This document shows positions 8,686 to 19,188 of a stretch of 19,188 nt of DNA, in pieces. Every line of letters begins with the position of its first letter. Positions within the stretch are counted from its first letter, which is position 1. Below the pieces are notes generated by a model, which worked only from the letters and a program-made list of their open reading frames with translations, had not been told where the DNA came from and did not search any database. Source of the stretch: Candidatus Delongbacteria bacterium. GTDB lineage: Bacteria > UBA4055. Position numbers and translations under genes: made by a program. The DNA lies in assembly GCA_016937995.1 (NCBI GenBank), contig JAFGVM010000032.1, positions 1 to 19,188 of the forward strand. The letters run 5' to 3'.

Positions 8686-9384
8686 TTAAATCAATACATC
8701 ATTCGGGTCAATTTCTTTTTTTATTCTGCTTACAAGAGCATATTCGTTCTCAGTAAAAATACTGTAGTCAGTCTTTGTGATCTTATCAGGAGTAAAAAAA
8801 TATTTTTCACTTGAGTTAAGCTTCATAAGCACAGACGTGATCACACCAAATTTTCCGAAGCTTCCGATCATAAATTGAGAAAGATCATAACCGGAAACAT
8901 TTTTAAGAGTTTTACAACCGTATTTAATTATATCACCAGTGGGAGAAACAAATTCAATTCCTTTAAAATAAGTTGCAGCAGAGGAAAATGAATTTAAAGT
9001 GGAAAGTATACCACCAATAGTTCTCCCGCAGTTTTTATCATGAAGCAAAGGAAAATACATAGACCTTTCGTTCAGATCATTGAACAGTTTACTCCATATC
9101 AAACCGGATTGAACGTTAATAAAAAAATTATCAATGTCTATTTCAATTATGTTGTTCAGTTTTATTGTGGATAGGTACAAAACATTATCTGACTTTGAGG
9201 AACTCAGGTCAGTACTTCCACTGCCTACAATCTGTATATTAAAAAGAAATTTATTGGCCAGTTTGACCAGAGATGATACTGTACTAGTATCGGTAGGATA
9301 AGCAATGAAATAATCATTAAAAGTTTTATAGTTTTTATGCTCGAGTACAGCTACGATCTTTTCCTGGTTCTTTTTGTTAAGCAT
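8686..9384 (-). CDS. Short FAD-binding protein, GlcD/GlcE-like (FAD_binding_4) lacking the oxidase C-terminal domain
   Basis: This 232-residue protein carries the FAD-binding fold of the glycolate oxidase/vanillyl-alcohol oxidase superfamily. Visible markers are VGSGST in the early pyrophosphate-binding region, GRTIGGILST in the middle, then SPTGDIIKYG, SGYDLSQFMIGSFGKFGVIT. This core ends near residue 190. The usual substrate-capping domain of 150 or more residues is missing. Instead the chain ends within about 40 residues in a tail, RIKKEIDPNDVLI, that resembles the extreme C-terminus of GlcD/GlcE proteins (rlk..fDP...l). This looks like an internal loss of the cap domain, not a simple truncation. 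It starts 8 bases after the MerR stop, with no clear ribosome site, suggesting translational coupling. It is probably cytoplasmic; whether it is an active oxidoreductase or a subunit of a larger enzyme is unknown. Confidence 0.8.
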   Translation of the reverse strand: MLNKKNQEKIVAVLEHKNYKTFNDYFIAYPTDTSTVSSLVKLANKFLFNIQIVGSGSTDLSSSKSDNVLYLSTIKLNNIIEIDIDNFFINVQSGLIWSKLFNDLNERSMYFPLLHDKNCGRTIGGILSTLNSFSSAATYFKGIEFVSPTGDIIKYGCKTLKNVSGYDLSQFMIGSFGKFGVITSVLMKLNSSEKYFFTPDKITKTDYSIFTENEYALVSRIKKEIDPNDVLI

Positions 9385-12260: not shown

Positions 12261-15200
12261 ATGAAGAAAACAATTGCATTCATGACCATTTTAGCCTTAT
12301 TCATGTTTGTATATTCAAAAAATGTTTCGATAAAACCGGAAGCTAATCATGATTATAAAATTGTTTCTGATGATGATTCGAAGCTTAAGTTAATATTTGA
12401 TGTTTCAAGTATTGATGTTAGTTATATTGATACCGGATCAGGTAATTTTTCGAAATTAGATCTGGGCAAAGGATATTTCACCGGAGAAGTTGGCAGGGCT
12501 TCACTTCCTGTTTTTAGAAATCTGATCGAAATCCCTTATGACTCTGAACCGGAAGTTACAGTATTAAGTTTTAATGAGAAGATTTACAGTCTGGAAGAAC
12601 TAGGAATTGAATACAGGATAATACCTTCCCAACCGAAATATTCTAAGTCATCTTTAGAGTCTGATAGGAAATTCGTAATTGATAATGAATTTTACAAAAC
12701 AAATGATTTTACAGAGAATGTTATAGCTAAAGTGAGTAAGAGTGGAGTAATGAGAGGTGTTGGTGTCGCGAATCTGGAAATTGCACCTTTTTCATACAAT
12801 CCTGTAACAGATCAAGTTAAAATTTTATCTGACATTGTAGTTGAAGTTAATTACAACAGCCATTCTACCAGCGAGAAAAGAGCTGAAGAGTATTCCCCGT
12901 TCTTTGAAAAACAGTACAGAAGTTTGATAAACTATGTTCCGATCTCTCCTAAAGCAGATCTTTCAGTTTATCCGGTTACTTATTTACTGGTTGCAAGTGA
13001 TCAACTATTTGGAAATTCAAAATTACAGGAATTTATAGACTGGAAAAAAGAGAAAGGATATAATGTTGTAGCCAACTACGTAAGTTCAACTGCGACTACC
13101 TCAAATATTGACACATGGATAGAGGATCAATATAACAATCTGGATCCAAAACCAACTTTTATACTTATCGTAGGAGATGAGGATGGAAGCTACAAAGTAG
13201 CTACTGAAATGTCACCGGCATTAGGTGCCACAGGAGCTGTTAGTGTTTCCGACCTGATGTACTCAGTAATCGGTCCTACCGGAACAAGCAATAGAATACC
13301 TTCAATGTACATTGGACGTTTTTCAGTACAAACACTGGGTGATCTCGATGCTCAGGTGGATAAAACTATCTGGTACGAAAAGACACAATTTACTTCAGGA
13401 GCAGACCTTAGTTATCTTAGTAATGTAATGGGTGTTGCCGGTGTGGATGCAGGATATGCTGCCAGCTATGGCAATCCACAGATCAGATACGGTATGACAT
13501 ATTATTTCAATACTAACTACAGAATACCGCTGGATGGATCAAAATCAAATATTACTGGAATATCATATCTTTATCCGGCTTCTGATGCTGCCGGTGTGAA
13601 CACTGAGATTATAACTCATGTGTCGAATGGTTTAGCATTTTATAACTATACTGCTCACGGATACAATGGTGGATTTGCTGATCCAAGTTTTTCAATTGCT
13701 AATGTCAACAGTCTTACAAATACAGGTGAGTATCCTTTAGTTGTAGGTAATTGCTGTCTGACGGGTTCTTTTGGAGATCTAGAATGTTTTGGAGAATCAT
13801 GGCTGAATGCTCCAGACAAGGGTGGAATCGGATTTATAGGTGCTTCAATGTCAACATACTGGGACGAGGATCTTGCAATGGGAGTTGGAGAGGCTGCAGT
13901 CGGCGATATTACACCGGCTTTATCACAGGATAAACCCGGAATGTATGACGGTGTAATGATGATGGATTATCCTACCCAGGGAGCTGTGAAATTTGCTGGT
14001 TTAATGGCCGTCGAGACACTGGGTGGATCTTATGTTAGTTCTTATTGGTCATCTTATCATTTGTTCGGAGATCCTTCTCTGATGGTATACTATGGTGTTC
14101 CGGGTGATAATACTGTGGGGCATTTACCGACAGTTGATCCGGGGGCAACAACCTATCAAATTACAGCTTTAAAAGGCTCTTATGTAGCAATGTCAGATGA
14201 TTCAGGAATACTTCATGGAGCAGGTATTGTCGGCGAAACAGGAAGTATTACATTGAATATTGAACCTTTTGTTTCAGGTAATGCTCATTTAGTGGTCACA
14301 TCACAATTTAAAAAACCATATTTCGAAGATATTACGATAGCAGCATTAACAGGTCCTTATGTGACCGTTAATGATTATGTGATAAATGGAAATGTTTTCG
14401 GAACAACAGGAACAGCAGATATTGAGTTGAAAAATGTAGGTATCCTCAACTCTGATAACATAGTAGTAACAGCCAGTACCGAGAATACTAACATTACTTT
14501 ATTAGATGATACTGAGAACTATAGTAATTTGGCACCTGACGGAACGCTAAATATTCAGGATTGTATTTCTTTTGAAATAGATCCGAATATTTCTGATCAG
14601 GAGGAGGTTACAATAGATTTAAGTATAACGGATGACTATACAAAAAGCACATATCCAGGATCTATAAGTTTTCTTGCTTCTGCACCAAAATTGGTCATTG
14701 GAAGAACTCTTCCGGCTGGTGTGATAGACCCCGGAGACACTGCTATAATTACATTTAATGTTGCAAACACAGGAAGTGCTGATATTGATGATATGACTGT
14801 TGAGTTGATAGAAACAAACGGAATGATAGTGTCTATCACTGATCCTGTCAATGTTACTCAAATTCTGTCAGGCGGAAATACCAATGTGGAATTCACATGT
14901 GATTTCGATTCTGAGATCCCAAATACTACAACCGCATATTTTACTTTGAAGATCACAAGTTCAAACGGTTATCTGAAAGAAGACCCGTTCCAGGTAGTAT
15001 TAGGAATGACAGAAGATTTTGAAACAGGCGATTTTACAGCTAATGAATGGACTCAGATAGGGAATGCATCCTGGGTTATAGATAGCTCGGTATTCTATGA
15101 TGGTGCTTATTCTTCAAGATCAGGTGATATTTCTGATAATCAGTATTCAAGAATGTCATTAACATTTGATTTCCCTGAAGGTGGAAGCATCAGCTTTTAC

Positions 15201-15713
15201 AAGATGATATCTTCTGAACCGGGTTATGATTTTTTAAGATTCTACATCGATGGAGTTATGCAGGATTACTGGAGTGGAACTTTGGGTTGGACTAAAGTGT
15301 CATATGTTATTCCTGAAGGAACTCATGATCTTCACTGGCAATATGACAAAGATGTGAGTGCTTCTATAGGAAGTGATTGCGGCTGGGTCGATAATATTCT
15401 TGTAAGCGGAGCGACATCAGGTATAGAAACGTATTCTGATAATATGCCGAATGAATGTAAATTGTATCAAAATTATCCTAATCCATTTAATCCGGTCACA
15501 GAAATTAATTTCTACATTGATAATGAAAGTGAAGTACATCTTTCTGTCTTTAATTCTTCTGGTCAGCTGGTTAAGGAATTGGTGAATGAAAAATTGGATA
15601 AGGGGATTCACATGACTAAATTCAATGCAAATGACCTGAACAGCGGAGTTTATTTTTACATTCTGCAAGTTGAAGATCAGAAATTAAGCAAAAAAATGCT
15701 TCTGATTAAATAA
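12261..15713 (+). CDS. Secreted gingipain-like C25 cysteine protease with type IX sorting domain
   Basis: The 1150-residue preproprotein starts with a signal peptide (1-19). A C25 propeptide of about 200 residues follows, with the GRASLPVFRNLIEIPYD stretch. The catalytic domain runs from about 235 (YPVTYLLVASDQLF) to about 610 (HLFGDPSLMVYYG). The catalytic His is 466 in NYTAHG and the nucleophile is most likely Cys499 in GNCCLTGSFGD; Cys498 is adjacent. A gingipain-type Ig-like domain follows (about 620-700), then CARDB-like beta domains, a jelly roll (about 918-1050, EDFETGDF to WVDNILVSG) and the type IX sorting domain from about 1068 (YQNYPNPFNP to KKMLLIK). Substrate specificity (Arg or Lys) cannot be read. 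It would be secreted by Sec and type IX and anchored or released extracellularly. A good ribosome site (GGGGAG) precedes the start. It stands alone between a promoter and a terminator. Confidence 0.93.
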   Translation: MKKTIAFMTILALFMFVYSKNVSIKPEANHDYKIVSDDDSKLKLIFDVSSIDVSYIDTGSGNFSKLDLGKGYFTGEVGRASLPVFRNLIEIPYDSEPEVTVLSFNEKIYSLEELGIEYRIIPSQPKYSKSSLESDRKFVIDNEFYKTNDFTENVIAKVSKSGVMRGVGVANLEIAPFSYNPVTDQVKILSDIVVEVNYNSHSTSEKRAEEYSPFFEKQYRSLINYVPISPKADLSVYPVTYLLVASDQLFGNSKLQEFIDWKKEKGYNVVANYVSSTATTSNIDTWIEDQYNNLDPKPTFILIVGDEDGSYKVATEMSPALGATGAVSVSDLMYSVIGPTGTSNRIPSMYIGRFSVQTLGDLDAQVDKTIWYEKTQFTSGADLSYLSNVMGVAGVDAGYAASYGNPQIRYGMTYYFNTNYRIPLDGSKSNITGISYLYPASDAAGVNTEIITHVSNGLAFYNYTAHGYNGGFADPSFSIANVNSLTNTGEYPLVVGNCCLTGSFGDLECFGESWLNAPDKGGIGFIGASMSTYWDEDLAMGVGEAAVGDITPALSQDKPGMYDGVMMMDYPTQGAVKFAGLMAVETLGGSYVSSYWSSYHLFGDPSLMVYYGVPGDNTVGHLPTVDPGATTYQITALKGSYVAMSDDSGILHGAGIVGETGSITLNIEPFVSGNAHLVVTSQFKKPYFEDITIAALTGPYVTVNDYVINGNVFGTTGTADIELKNVGILNSDNIVVTASTENTNITLLDDTENYSNLAPDGTLNIQDCISFEIDPNISDQEEVTIDLSITDDYTKSTYPGSISFLASAPKLVIGRTLPAGVIDPGDTAIITFNVANTGSADIDDMTVELIETNGMIVSITDPVNVTQILSGGNTNVEFTCDFDSEIPNTTTAYFTLKITSSNGYLKEDPFQVVLGMTEDFETGDFTANEWTQIGNASWVIDSSVFYDGAYSSRSGDISDNQYSRMSLTFDFPEGGSISFYKMISSEPGYDFLRFYIDGVMQDYWSGTLGWTKVSYVIPEGTHDLHWQYDKDVSASIGSDCGWVDNILVSGATSGIETYSDNMPNECKLYQNYPNPFNPVTEINFYIDNESEVHLSVFNSSGQLVKELVNEKLDKGIHMTKFNANDLNSGVYFYILQVEDQKLSKKMLLIK

Positions 15714-16515: not shown

Positions 16516-17565
16516 TCATTTTAATGTCTTTGTTTCACCTATACCTATATGAATGAATTCTTCATCCACCAATCCATGCCTGATCTTAGCTGACTTCAGA
16601 TCTCTAACAGGCTCATCTATCCCTTCAGATGAAAGCTTAAATGTTCCCCAGTGACCTGCAATTGAAAATTTTGAATTGATCTCTTTGTGGATCAAAACAG
16701 CCTCTTCAGGATTAACATGCATATCTTTCATGAACCATCTAGGTTTATATGCTCCTATTGGTATCAAAGCAAGATCAAAGCTCTTGAATTTTTCACCTAT
16801 TTCTCTGAACTGAACATCATTGTAACCGGTATCCCCTCCAAACCAGAACATAATATCATCAATTATTACGGCATAACTGCACCATAGAGTTTTATTCCTT
16901 CCCCATGGTTTTCTTCCGGAAAAGTGCTGAGTTGGAGTTGCGGTAACATTAATGTTTTCAGATTCATAATTTCCGTACCAGTCTAGTTCAATTATGTTCT
17001 CATCAAAAATATCAAGATCAAGGAAAAAAGCTTTTAATCCAAGTGGTACGATCCATTTTGTTCTGTTATTAATCCATTTCACAAAATTAATATCCAAATG
17101 ATCATAGTGATCATGAGAGATCAAAACAATATCTATAGCTGGAAGATGTTCTTTGTTGATACCGGGAGGATGCACTCTCTCCGGTCCGGCAAATGAGACC
17201 GGTGAGGCTCTGTGAGAAAACACAGGGTCAGTAAGAATGTTTATACCGTTCTTTTGCACAAGAAAAGAAGAATTGCCTATCCATGTAACTTTTAAATTAC
17301 TATCGGGTATGTTTATTACTGAACTATCTGCAACATTGAACGGTACTTTATCATAATTCCCTTCCCACTCAATTCTTTCATCATCAAAATGCATTTTGAA
17401 CACATCAGTAATACCTTTCTCGATCTTATGATCAAGATAAGGATTTATGAATGAATTTTTCCCGTAATGCATAGGTTTATTTTCTTTTTTAAACATGGGG
17501 TTAGTACATGAAAAAAAAATTAATGTTAGAATTGAAAAATAAATATGCTTCATTGACACATTCAT
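16516..17565 (-). CDS. Lipoprotein metallo-beta-lactamase-fold hydrolase, NAPE-PLD/UlaG-like
   Basis: The 349-residue protein begins with a hydrophobic signal ending in IFFSC, so Cys20 is the likely lipidated residue after signal peptidase II cleavage (lipobox is not ideal: Phe at -3). The metal site is complete: H-x-H-x-D-H at 151-156 (SHDHYDHLD), an upstream WIGNSSFLV and TDPVFSHRASP, TPTQHFSGRKPWGRN, the GGDTGY aspartate and the AGHWGTF histidine. The FAGPERVHPPG and QHFSGR...LWCSY segments match the NAPE-PLD branch, whose animal members hydrolyse N-acyl phosphatidylethanolamines as phosphodiesterases. Bacterial members are mostly uncharacterised, and other lactone or phosphodiester substrates are possible. 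It starts 2 bases after the stop of the amidohydrolase gene, with a poor ribosome site, so translation is probably coupled. A second possible start is Met5. Confidence 0.85.
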   Translation of the reverse strand: MNVSMKHIYFSILTLIFFSCTNPMFKKENKPMHYGKNSFINPYLDHKIEKGITDVFKMHFDDERIEWEGNYDKVPFNVADSSVINIPDSNLKVTWIGNSSFLVQKNGINILTDPVFSHRASPVSFAGPERVHPPGINKEHLPAIDIVLISHDHYDHLDINFVKWINNRTKWIVPLGLKAFFLDLDIFDENIIELDWYGNYESENINVTATPTQHFSGRKPWGRNKTLWCSYAVIIDDIMFWFGGDTGYNDVQFREIGEKFKSFDLALIPIGAYKPRWFMKDMHVNPEEAVLIHKEINSKFSIAGHWGTFKLSSEGIDEPVRDLKSAKIRHGLVDEEFIHIGIGETKTLK

Positions 17566-17567
17566 TA

Positions 17568-19094
17568 TTACTTTATTAACACGATCTTTTTTATATCACT
17601 GCTATTAACTCCGTTCAAAACAACATAATATATCCCAGACATAAATTTACTTCCATCGAACGTGAATTTACTGATCCCTTTTTTAAGATCACCTTTAAAA
17701 ATTTCTTTGACTATACATCCTTTTGTGTTATACACAGACAAACTGTATTCTTCAGCTATCAATATCTGGATATCCAAAATGATTACAGGATTGAAAGGGT
17801 TAGGATACGCAGAAATCAGACCTGTAGAATTCGTAATATTTTGGTTTATACCTGAACTTGCAAAAAGCTCATCCAGATTAAATTCAATAGGATCGGTCAG
17901 ATGTCCCGGAGTTGTATCAGTAGCTATTGATATATTGAATTTTCTCAGAGAAGGTATGAACTGAATAGTATGTATAGTTCCACTGTGCCCGGATGCAGCA
18001 CAAAGAACTTCTCTGTTTCTTTTTATCGTAAATTCTGTAGAATTTGCCATTGAATCAACCAAATTGTCATATCTGTAGCAGTAGATCGGATCATACAGTT
18101 TTCTATGATGATTCGTAGTTATTATATTAGTGCCTATATCAGGATCATTGTCAGATATATCTCTGTAAACTGCACCGAGTTCATTATTAACTTCAATAGC
18201 AATAGGTCCTGTTTTAGATGAAGCGGTTGAGGTAGTTTCGATGATATAAGAATCGCTTCTGTTCTTTACACTTACTGCATAGAAAACATCTAAAGGGTTA
18301 CATTCATTATCCTCGTTATAATCAACAGCTTCAACTCCGTTCCTGATAGTCAGATGCATAGGGTGATAGGGTGGACCTGAAGTCGTAGATTCATAGTTGC
18401 CGACATTGTGGAAAGCGCATAGACCAGACTCGTTTAATATGGACATACCACCCATCATTCCTGCAAAACCGAAAAGAACAAAATTCTGTTCATCATCAAA
18501 AGTATCTACTTTGTGAACAACCATGATCTGATTTCTGATCAGAACTGGGTCAGGAGTCCAGTCAAGATGTCTAGTTATCACTGTTTCACCTAAAAGTTCA
18601 GGATCATTCAAAGTAGCATCTCCATAGCTGGTCAGGGATGAACACCCCATTGACATTGGAAATTTAAGGTTATGTTCTTTTTTAGAAAATATTCTCATAT
18701 CCACATAAGCATTGGCAAAAAGAATATCAGTGGAATCTAGGTCTCTGCCTATGACATCCGAATAAATTGATATTCCTGCTTCTTTCATACCGTTGATTAT
18801 GCCTGATGCTTCGGTTAGATATTTATCTTCGACAGAGAAATTATTCATGAAAATATTATGGTAATAATTATATAGGGATCCATTGTTATAAAAAATATTC
18901 GCAAGGTAGTAGTTTATAGCTACATCTTTGATCTGCTCTCCTGCATAATAACCGTATCCCAATCCTCTTTCATAGTGATCTCCCTCTACAAATATTACTT
19001 TCAGTTTTTTTACGGTTAAACTGTCACCAGCAGGTATCTGTGAAAATAATATCGTATTCAACAAAAGACATGTAACAATTAATAATTTATTCAT
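17568..19094 (-). CDS. Secreted Ntn-type cysteine amidohydrolase (C45/acyltransferase-like) with type IX sorting domain
   Basis: The 508-residue protein has a signal peptide (1-19, ending FSQ) and the N-terminal segment of C45/isopenicillin-N acyltransferase-type proteins: VEGDHYERGLGYGYYAGEQ. The likely self-cleavage site is Gly150-Cys151 in SMGCSSLTSYGD, exposing Cys151 as the N-terminal nucleophile. ITRHLDWTPDP and a Gly/Met-rich FAGMMGGMSILNESGLCAFHN stretch follow, as in this family. The last 80 residues form a type IX sorting domain (SAYPNPFNP to KKIVLIK). It should hydrolyse or transfer an amide-linked acyl group outside the cell; the substrate is unknown. The ATG at 19094 is preferred because GGAG lies 6 bases upstream; an ATG at 19115 would prepend seven residues and lies before that site. 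It overlaps the upstream frame by 8 bases and is coupled to the lipoprotein hydrolase downstream. Confidence 0.85.
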   Translation of the reverse strand: MNKLLIVTCLLLNTILFSQIPAGDSLTVKKLKVIFVEGDHYERGLGYGYYAGEQIKDVAINYYLANIFYNNGSLYNYYHNIFMNNFSVEDKYLTEASGIINGMKEAGISIYSDVIGRDLDSTDILFANAYVDMRIFSKKEHNLKFPMSMGCSSLTSYGDATLNDPELLGETVITRHLDWTPDPVLIRNQIMVVHKVDTFDDEQNFVLFGFAGMMGGMSILNESGLCAFHNVGNYESTTSGPPYHPMHLTIRNGVEAVDYNEDNECNPLDVFYAVSVKNRSDSYIIETTSTASSKTGPIAIEVNNELGAVYRDISDNDPDIGTNIITTNHHRKLYDPIYCYRYDNLVDSMANSTEFTIKRNREVLCAASGHSGTIHTIQFIPSLRKFNISIATDTTPGHLTDPIEFNLDELFASSGINQNITNSTGLISAYPNPFNPVIILDIQILIAEEYSLSVYNTKGCIVKEIFKGDLKKGISKFTFDGSKFMSGIYYVVLNGVNSSDIKKIVLIK

Positions 19095-19188
19095 TTTTAA
19101 CTCCGTACAATTCATTTACTAATATATTGATCTTGTTTTTCAATTCAGTATCTGCAGTATTTGAAGATAATATTTTATTTACATACAA
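19087..19188 (-). CDS. C-terminal end of an unknown upstream gene (5' end outside the window)
   Basis: A frame stays open from the window edge for 33 residues and stops at a TAA (19087-19089), overlapping the start of the amidohydrolase in an AATGAATAA arrangement. The fragment ends NKINILVNELYGVKNE, a charged helical tail with no recognisable motif. The overlap and the same strand suggest it is the upstream gene of the same operon. The short length makes the coding call tentative. Confidence 0.5.
   Translation of the reverse strand: MYVNKILSSNTADTELKNKINILVNELYGVKNE

What the first reader, a model, noticed from the sequence alone, without database searches (positions are those of the whole stretch)
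16516..19094. Coupled NAPE-PLD-like lipoprotein and secreted Ntn amidohydrolase: possible N-acyl-lipid processing cassette
The two genes are translationally coupled (2-base gap) and both products are predicted to be outside the cytoplasm, one by lipidation and one by type IX secretion. In animals NAPE-PLD makes N-acylethanolamines, and an Ntn cysteine amidase (NAAA, whose fold is related to this family) hydrolyses them. A bacterial pair would be a surface pathway that releases and degrades N-acyl lipids or similar amides. The substrates are my inference; each family has other activities.
Basis: partly seen in the sequence, partly recalled or inferred. Interest (0 to 1): 0.65.

Follow-up and report, generated by a model that had tools for sequence, protein, structure and literature searches.

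The report
Unconserved pair of two known hydrolases
Two real enzyme genes lie side by side here, one resembling the animal lipid enzyme NAPE-PLD and one a secreted self-cutting amidase, but they are neighbours in no other genome searched, so the idea of a shared lipid pathway has no support beyond this one arrangement.

Summary
16516-17565 (-) encodes a lipoprotein-like metallo-beta-lactamase-fold protein that is a clear relative of human NAPE-PLD (PDB 4qn9, E 7e-67, about 43% identity, all seven metal ligands kept). 17568-19094 (-) encodes a T9SS-tailed cysteine Ntn hydrolase. The two are 2 bases apart.

The second protein sits closest to isopenicillin N acyltransferase (MEROPS C45; Z 35.9), not NAAA/acid ceramidase (C89; Z about 26-27), though it shares their catalytic Cys, Arg, Asp, Asn, Arg set, invariant in 46 sequences.

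None of 45 homologous Ntn loci carries a NAPE-PLD-like gene in its flanks. Of 47 other Ntn-bearing genomes, 4 have one anywhere, none nearby. In 386 genomes the two genes co-occur at the chance rate (Fisher p 0.69). Relatives in the window's own phylum have one gene or the other, never both. NAPE-PLD-like genes elsewhere have unrelated neighbours.

Most likely these are two separately distributed extracytoplasmic hydrolases that happen to share an operon in one lineage. Both belong to known kinds. The widespread, uncharacterised T9SS-secreted C45-like family is the more interesting part.

The parts
16516..17565 (-). NAPE-PLD-like metallo-beta-lactamase-fold protein, 349 aa, putative lipoprotein
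   Evidence: Pfam Lactamase_B_2 E 1.7e-36; human NAPE-PLD E 7e-67; AlphaFold model best match 4qn9, E 1.7e-33, 41% id
17098..17115 (-). HDHYDH metal-binding motif, residues 151-156 of the MBL protein
   Evidence: H151, H153, D155, H156 invariant in the 11-sequence alignment
17568..19094 (-). Secreted C45-like cysteine Ntn hydrolase proenzyme with T9SS tail, 508 aa
   Evidence: NF040521 C45_proenzyme E 3.6e-13 (below the curated cut-off for this member, matched by all 42 members scanned, best 4.8e-32); AlphaFold pLDDT 91.1; best fold 2x1c Z 35.9
18642..18644 (-). Cys151, predicted nucleophile; predicted autocleavage between Gly150 and Cys151
   Evidence: invariant 46/46; aligned with the first residue of mature NAAA, acid ceramidase and penicillin V acylase chains
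18561..18572 (-). Arg175-x-x-Asp178, likely counterpart of Arg159/Asp162 of acid ceramidase
   Evidence: invariant 46/46; roles of Arg159/Asp162 from PMC5915598; correspondence by motif order and spacing
18072..18113 (-). Asn328 to Arg341, likely counterpart of Asn320/Arg333 of acid ceramidase (same 13-residue spacing)
   Evidence: invariant 46/46; PMC5915598
17580..17807 (-). T9SS C-terminal sorting domain, residues 430-505 of the Ntn protein
   Evidence: PF18962 33.2 bits, TIGR04183 29.2 bits
19087..19188 (-). 3' end of an upstream ORF cut by the contig end, overlapping the Ntn start codon
   Evidence: 33 open codons ending in a stop that overlaps the start of the Ntn gene; the contig ends at 19188

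Best explanation
Two independently distributed extracytoplasmic hydrolases that share an operon in this one lineage and probably act separately. The lipoprotein is a NAPE-PLD-family metallo-phosphodiesterase: a two-metal site (H151, H153, D155, H156, H214, D245, H305) activates water to cut a phosphodiester, most plausibly in a modified phospholipid at the envelope. The T9SS-exported protein is a C45-like proenzyme: it cuts itself before Cys151, and the freed Cys151, helped by Arg175, Asp178, Asn328 and Arg341, then hydrolyses or transfers an acyl group on an extracellular amide or peptide. Shown: the families, the conserved catalytic residues, the fold of the predicted models, and the lack of linkage elsewhere. 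Inferred: export, autocleavage and both substrates.
For: None of 45 Ntn loci from other genomes has a NAPE-PLD-like gene in its flanks; 37 of 45 have over 1.7 kb downstream and 31 have ample sequence on both sides. Only 4 of 47 Ntn-bearing genomes have a NAPE-PLD-like gene (E<=1e-10), none in the fetched Ntn loci. In 386 genomes MBL occurs in 62, Ntn in 12, both in 3 including the window's own; Fisher p 0.69 without own. In the window's phylum MBL (E<=1e-20) is in G004, G007 and G011 and the Ntn domain in G009. The closest NAPE-PLD-like loci have unrelated neighbours: 58 neighbour proteins, no family in more than 3. Catalytic sets.
Against: The genes are 2 bases apart on one strand in an apparent operon, which usually reflects co-expression. 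Searches covered species-level genomes only, many of them incomplete MAGs; metagenome contigs could not be scanned.
Confidence: 0.68

Rival explanations
1. A surface N-acyl-lipid pathway: the lipoprotein releases N-acylethanolamine from N-acyl-PE, and the secreted Ntn enzyme splits it into fatty acid and ethanolamine.
For: Strong relation to human NAPE-PLD with all metal ligands and the GAYxPRWFM segment; Ntn fold shared with NAAA and acid ceramidase, with the same kind of catalytic residues; 2-bp spacing.
Against: The pair is found nowhere else and co-occurrence is at chance. The Ntn protein's nearest fold is isopenicillin N acyltransferase, not NAAA. No evidence of N-acyl-PE in this organism.
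Confidence: 0.1
2. The lipoprotein is a NAPE-PLD-family hydrolase of a substrate other than N-acyl-PE (another phosphodiester, a lactone or a cyclic nucleotide), and the Ntn enzyme is a peptide or beta-lactam-type acylase; both serve scavenging or detoxification.
For: Fold neighbours of the MBL model below NAPE-PLD include other metallo-hydrolases such as an isothiocyanate hydrolase and a cAMP-bound protein. The C45 profile is named for acyltransferases and hydrolases alike.
Against: The next PDB matches fall to about 14-24% identity and much weaker E-values than NAPE-PLD.
Confidence: 0.2
3. The adjacency is an assembly or binning artefact.
For: The genome is a fragmented assembly of 99 contigs and the contig ends 94 bases beyond the Ntn start codon.
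Against: Both ORFs are intact, composition is even across the junction, and a chimeric join giving a 2-bp operon-like spacing is unlikely.
Confidence: 0.02

Closest known systems
Human NAPE-PLD (PDB 4qn9)
   Same: About 43% identity over 109-386 of the human protein, all seven metal ligands, GAYxPRWFM segment and the following His
   Different: Window protein is a putative bacterial lipoprotein; the residue before the conserved His (human KYQH) is Met instead of Gln; other bacterial relatives are more similar to human (52.7% for L095)
Isopenicillin N acyltransferase, MEROPS C45 (PDB 2x1c)
   Same: Best fold match, Z 35.9, rmsd 2.8 over 321 residues, model residues 31-414 covered
   Different: 15% identity; the window protein has an export signal and a T9SS tail
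NAAA and acid ceramidase, MEROPS C89 (PDB 6dxw, 5u81)
   Same: Z 26.5 and 26.9 over about 311 residues; Cys151 aligns with the nucleophile; Cys, Arg, Asp, Asn, Arg set shared by motif order and spacing
   Different: 11-13% identity and lower Z than C45

Membership tests
NAPE-PLD family (MBL fold) | HxHxDH plus His, Asp, His metal ligands | tested here: met
   H151 H153 D155 H156 H214 D245 H305, aligned with human NAPE-PLD
NAPE-PLD family (MBL fold) | Sequence and fold closest to NAPE-PLD among solved structures | tested here: met
   E 7e-67; Foldseek E 1.7e-33 against 8e-17 for the next protein
NAPE-PLD family (MBL fold) | Hydrolysis of N-acyl-PE | not testable with these tools
   needs an assay
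MEROPS C45 (isopenicillin N acyltransferase-like) | Match to the C45 proenzyme profile | tested here: inconclusive
   Window member 49.6 bits, below the curated 85; all 42 family members match, best E 4.8e-32; Pfam AAT in 3 of 42
MEROPS C45 (isopenicillin N acyltransferase-like) | Ntn fold with internal Cys nucleophile after a pro-segment | tested here: met
   2x1c Z 35.9; Cys151 invariant
MEROPS C45 (isopenicillin N acyltransferase-like) | Autoproteolysis at the nucleophile | not testable with these tools
   needs protein
MEROPS C89 (NAAA, acid ceramidase) | Sequence-level similarity to NAAA or acid ceramidase | tested here: inconclusive
   Profile search of solved structures gave no NAAA or acid ceramidase; its significant hits were all to the T9SS tail region; fold related but weaker than C45
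T9SS cargo | C-terminal sorting domain above curated cut-off | tested here: met
   PF18962 33.2 vs 27, TIGR04183 29.2 vs 23
Conserved two-gene cassette | Adjacency in other genomes | tested here: not met
   0 of 45 loci; 0 adjacent among 47 genomes

The most novel reading that the evidence does not exclude
A lineage-specific operon in which a NAPE-PLD-type lipoprotein and a T9SS-secreted C45-like amidase act in sequence on N-acylated envelope or host lipids, a bacterial parallel of the animal NAPE-PLD/NAAA route built from a different Ntn branch.
Probability: 0.08. Interest if true: 0.6.

Novelty: new member of a known kind. Interest (0 to 1): 0.2.

Why it matters
It removes a tempting pathway claim that rested on one gene adjacency, and points to a better target: a T9SS-secreted C45-like Ntn hydrolase family spread across Cloacimonadota, Bacteroidales, Ignavibacteria and related groups, with an invariant catalytic set and no described substrate in the sources searched. 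If the pair did work together it would be a bacterial counterpart of endocannabinoid-type lipid turnover.

Tried and rejected
Conserved neighbourhood of the Ntn gene: none beyond close relatives (a TPR-like ORF upstream in five Cloacimonadota loci). Continuation of the contig past 19188: the end sequence occurs once in the assembly, so the upstream gene could not be recovered. Conserved neighbours of NAPE-PLD-like genes: none. One bacterial NAPE-PLD-like gene (L095) lies beside gamma-glutamyltranspeptidase and an asparaginase-2, both Ntn enzymes of other families; considered as support for an MBL-Ntn link and set aside as a single case. Literature searches found no described bacterial NAPE-PLD activity or T9SS C45 enzyme in the open library; absence there is weak evidence. 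The primary paper on the NAPE-PLD structure is not held, so the roles of the human residues rest on alignment and general knowledge.

Full report
Observation. Both genes exist as described on the minus strand, 2 bases apart. The Ntn ORF has two possible starts, 19094 and 19115; the first puts the signal-like sequence at the N terminus. An upstream ORF, of which only the last 33 codons lie on the contig, ends inside the first codons of the Ntn gene, and the contig ends at 19188. So an operon of at least three genes is likely, and the finding describes only its last two.

NAPE-PLD-like protein. It matches Pfam Lactamase_B_2 (E 1.7e-36) and, among solved structures, human NAPE-PLD far above anything else (E 7e-67 against 0.004 for the next). 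The AlphaFold model (pLDDT 78.8) finds 4qn9 at 41% identity. The ligand set H151, H153, D155, H156, H214, D245, H305 aligns with the human protein and is invariant among eleven homologues. This is a broad bacterial family: 62 of 386 genomes have a match at E<=1e-35, and some bacterial proteins are closer to human NAPE-PLD (52.7%, L095) than the window protein is (43.4%). The similarity therefore says phosphodiesterase of this family, and does not single out N-acyl-PE as substrate.

Ntn protein. A single-sequence search of solved structures gave nothing significant, and a profile search gave significant hits only to the sorting domain. The NCBIfam C45 proenzyme model matches below its cut-off here, but it matches all 42 family members scanned, best 4.8e-32; T9SS tails are found in 32-33 of 42. 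The AlphaFold model is confident (pLDDT 91.1). Its best fold match is isopenicillin N acyltransferase (Z 35.9, rmsd 2.8, 321 residues), followed by acid ceramidase (26.9), NAAA precursor (26.5) and the 66.3 kDa protein PLBD2 (25.6). In the rows for mature enzymes the alignment starts at Cys151 opposite the first residue of the catalytic chain: 126 in human NAAA, 143 in acid ceramidase, 1 in penicillin V acylase. Cys151, Arg175, Asp178, Asn328 and Arg341 are invariant in 46 of 46 sequences, as are Arg251, Glu255, Glu301 and Arg311. Acid ceramidase uses Cys143, Arg159, Asp162, Asn320 and Arg333 (PMC5915598); the Asn-to-Arg spacing of 13 is the same. The class is thus well supported. The branch is C45-like rather than the NAAA branch C89.

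Linkage. A scan of GTDB species genomes gave 45 loci of the Ntn family, in Cloacimonadota, Bacteroidales, Ignavibacteria, KSB1, a Delongbacteria MAG and others. None has a NAPE-PLD-like gene in the fetched flanks. Of 45 loci counted, 37 have more than 1.7 kb downstream, and 31 have enough on both sides. Searching 47 whole Ntn-bearing genomes found a NAPE-PLD-like gene in 4, none of them in the fetched Ntn loci. In 386 genomes, MBL was in 62, Ntn in 12 and both in 3 including the window's own, the other two on different contigs; Fisher p is 0.69 with the own genome left out. In the 13 genomes of the window's phylum the two genes occur in different genomes, and the MBL homologues there lack the GAYxPRWFM segment seen in the window and human proteins, so the window's copy may have been acquired separately; that is inference. 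From the MBL side, 58 neighbouring proteins of homologues show no recurrent family.

Judgement. The most economical account is two separate exported hydrolases that share an operon in one lineage. Limits: many genomes are incomplete MAGs, metagenome contigs could not be scanned, records very near the window's own genome may be left out by the tool, and substrate cannot be settled by sequence.

Noticed in passing
window 19087-19188 (-): The 3' end of an upstream ORF overlaps the Ntn start codon and is cut by the contig end, so the operon has at least one more gene.
   Followed up: partly
L095:634-4032: In genome G192 a NAPE-PLD-like lipoprotein gene is followed within a few bases by gamma-glutamyltranspeptidase and flanked by a divergent asparaginase-2 gene, both Ntn hydrolases of other families.
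   Followed up: partly
L085:3731-8858 and L025: A KSB1 genome carries at least three tandem copies of the Ntn family with an added N-terminal domain.
   Followed up: no
L082:1634-5649: Two identical inverted copies of the Ntn gene on a 7.3 kb contig, probably a palindromic assembly artefact.
   Followed up: no
L049, L050, L051, L052, L055: In five Cloacimonadota loci the Ntn gene directly follows a TPR-like ORF, with the ORFs abutting or overlapping by a few bases.
   Followed up: partly
window 12261-15713 (+): Gingipain-like C25 peptidase with propeptide and T9SS tail.
   Followed up: no
window 8686-9384 (-): A 232 aa FAD-binding protein that matches only the N-terminal part of the glycolate oxidase GlcD model.
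   Followed up: no
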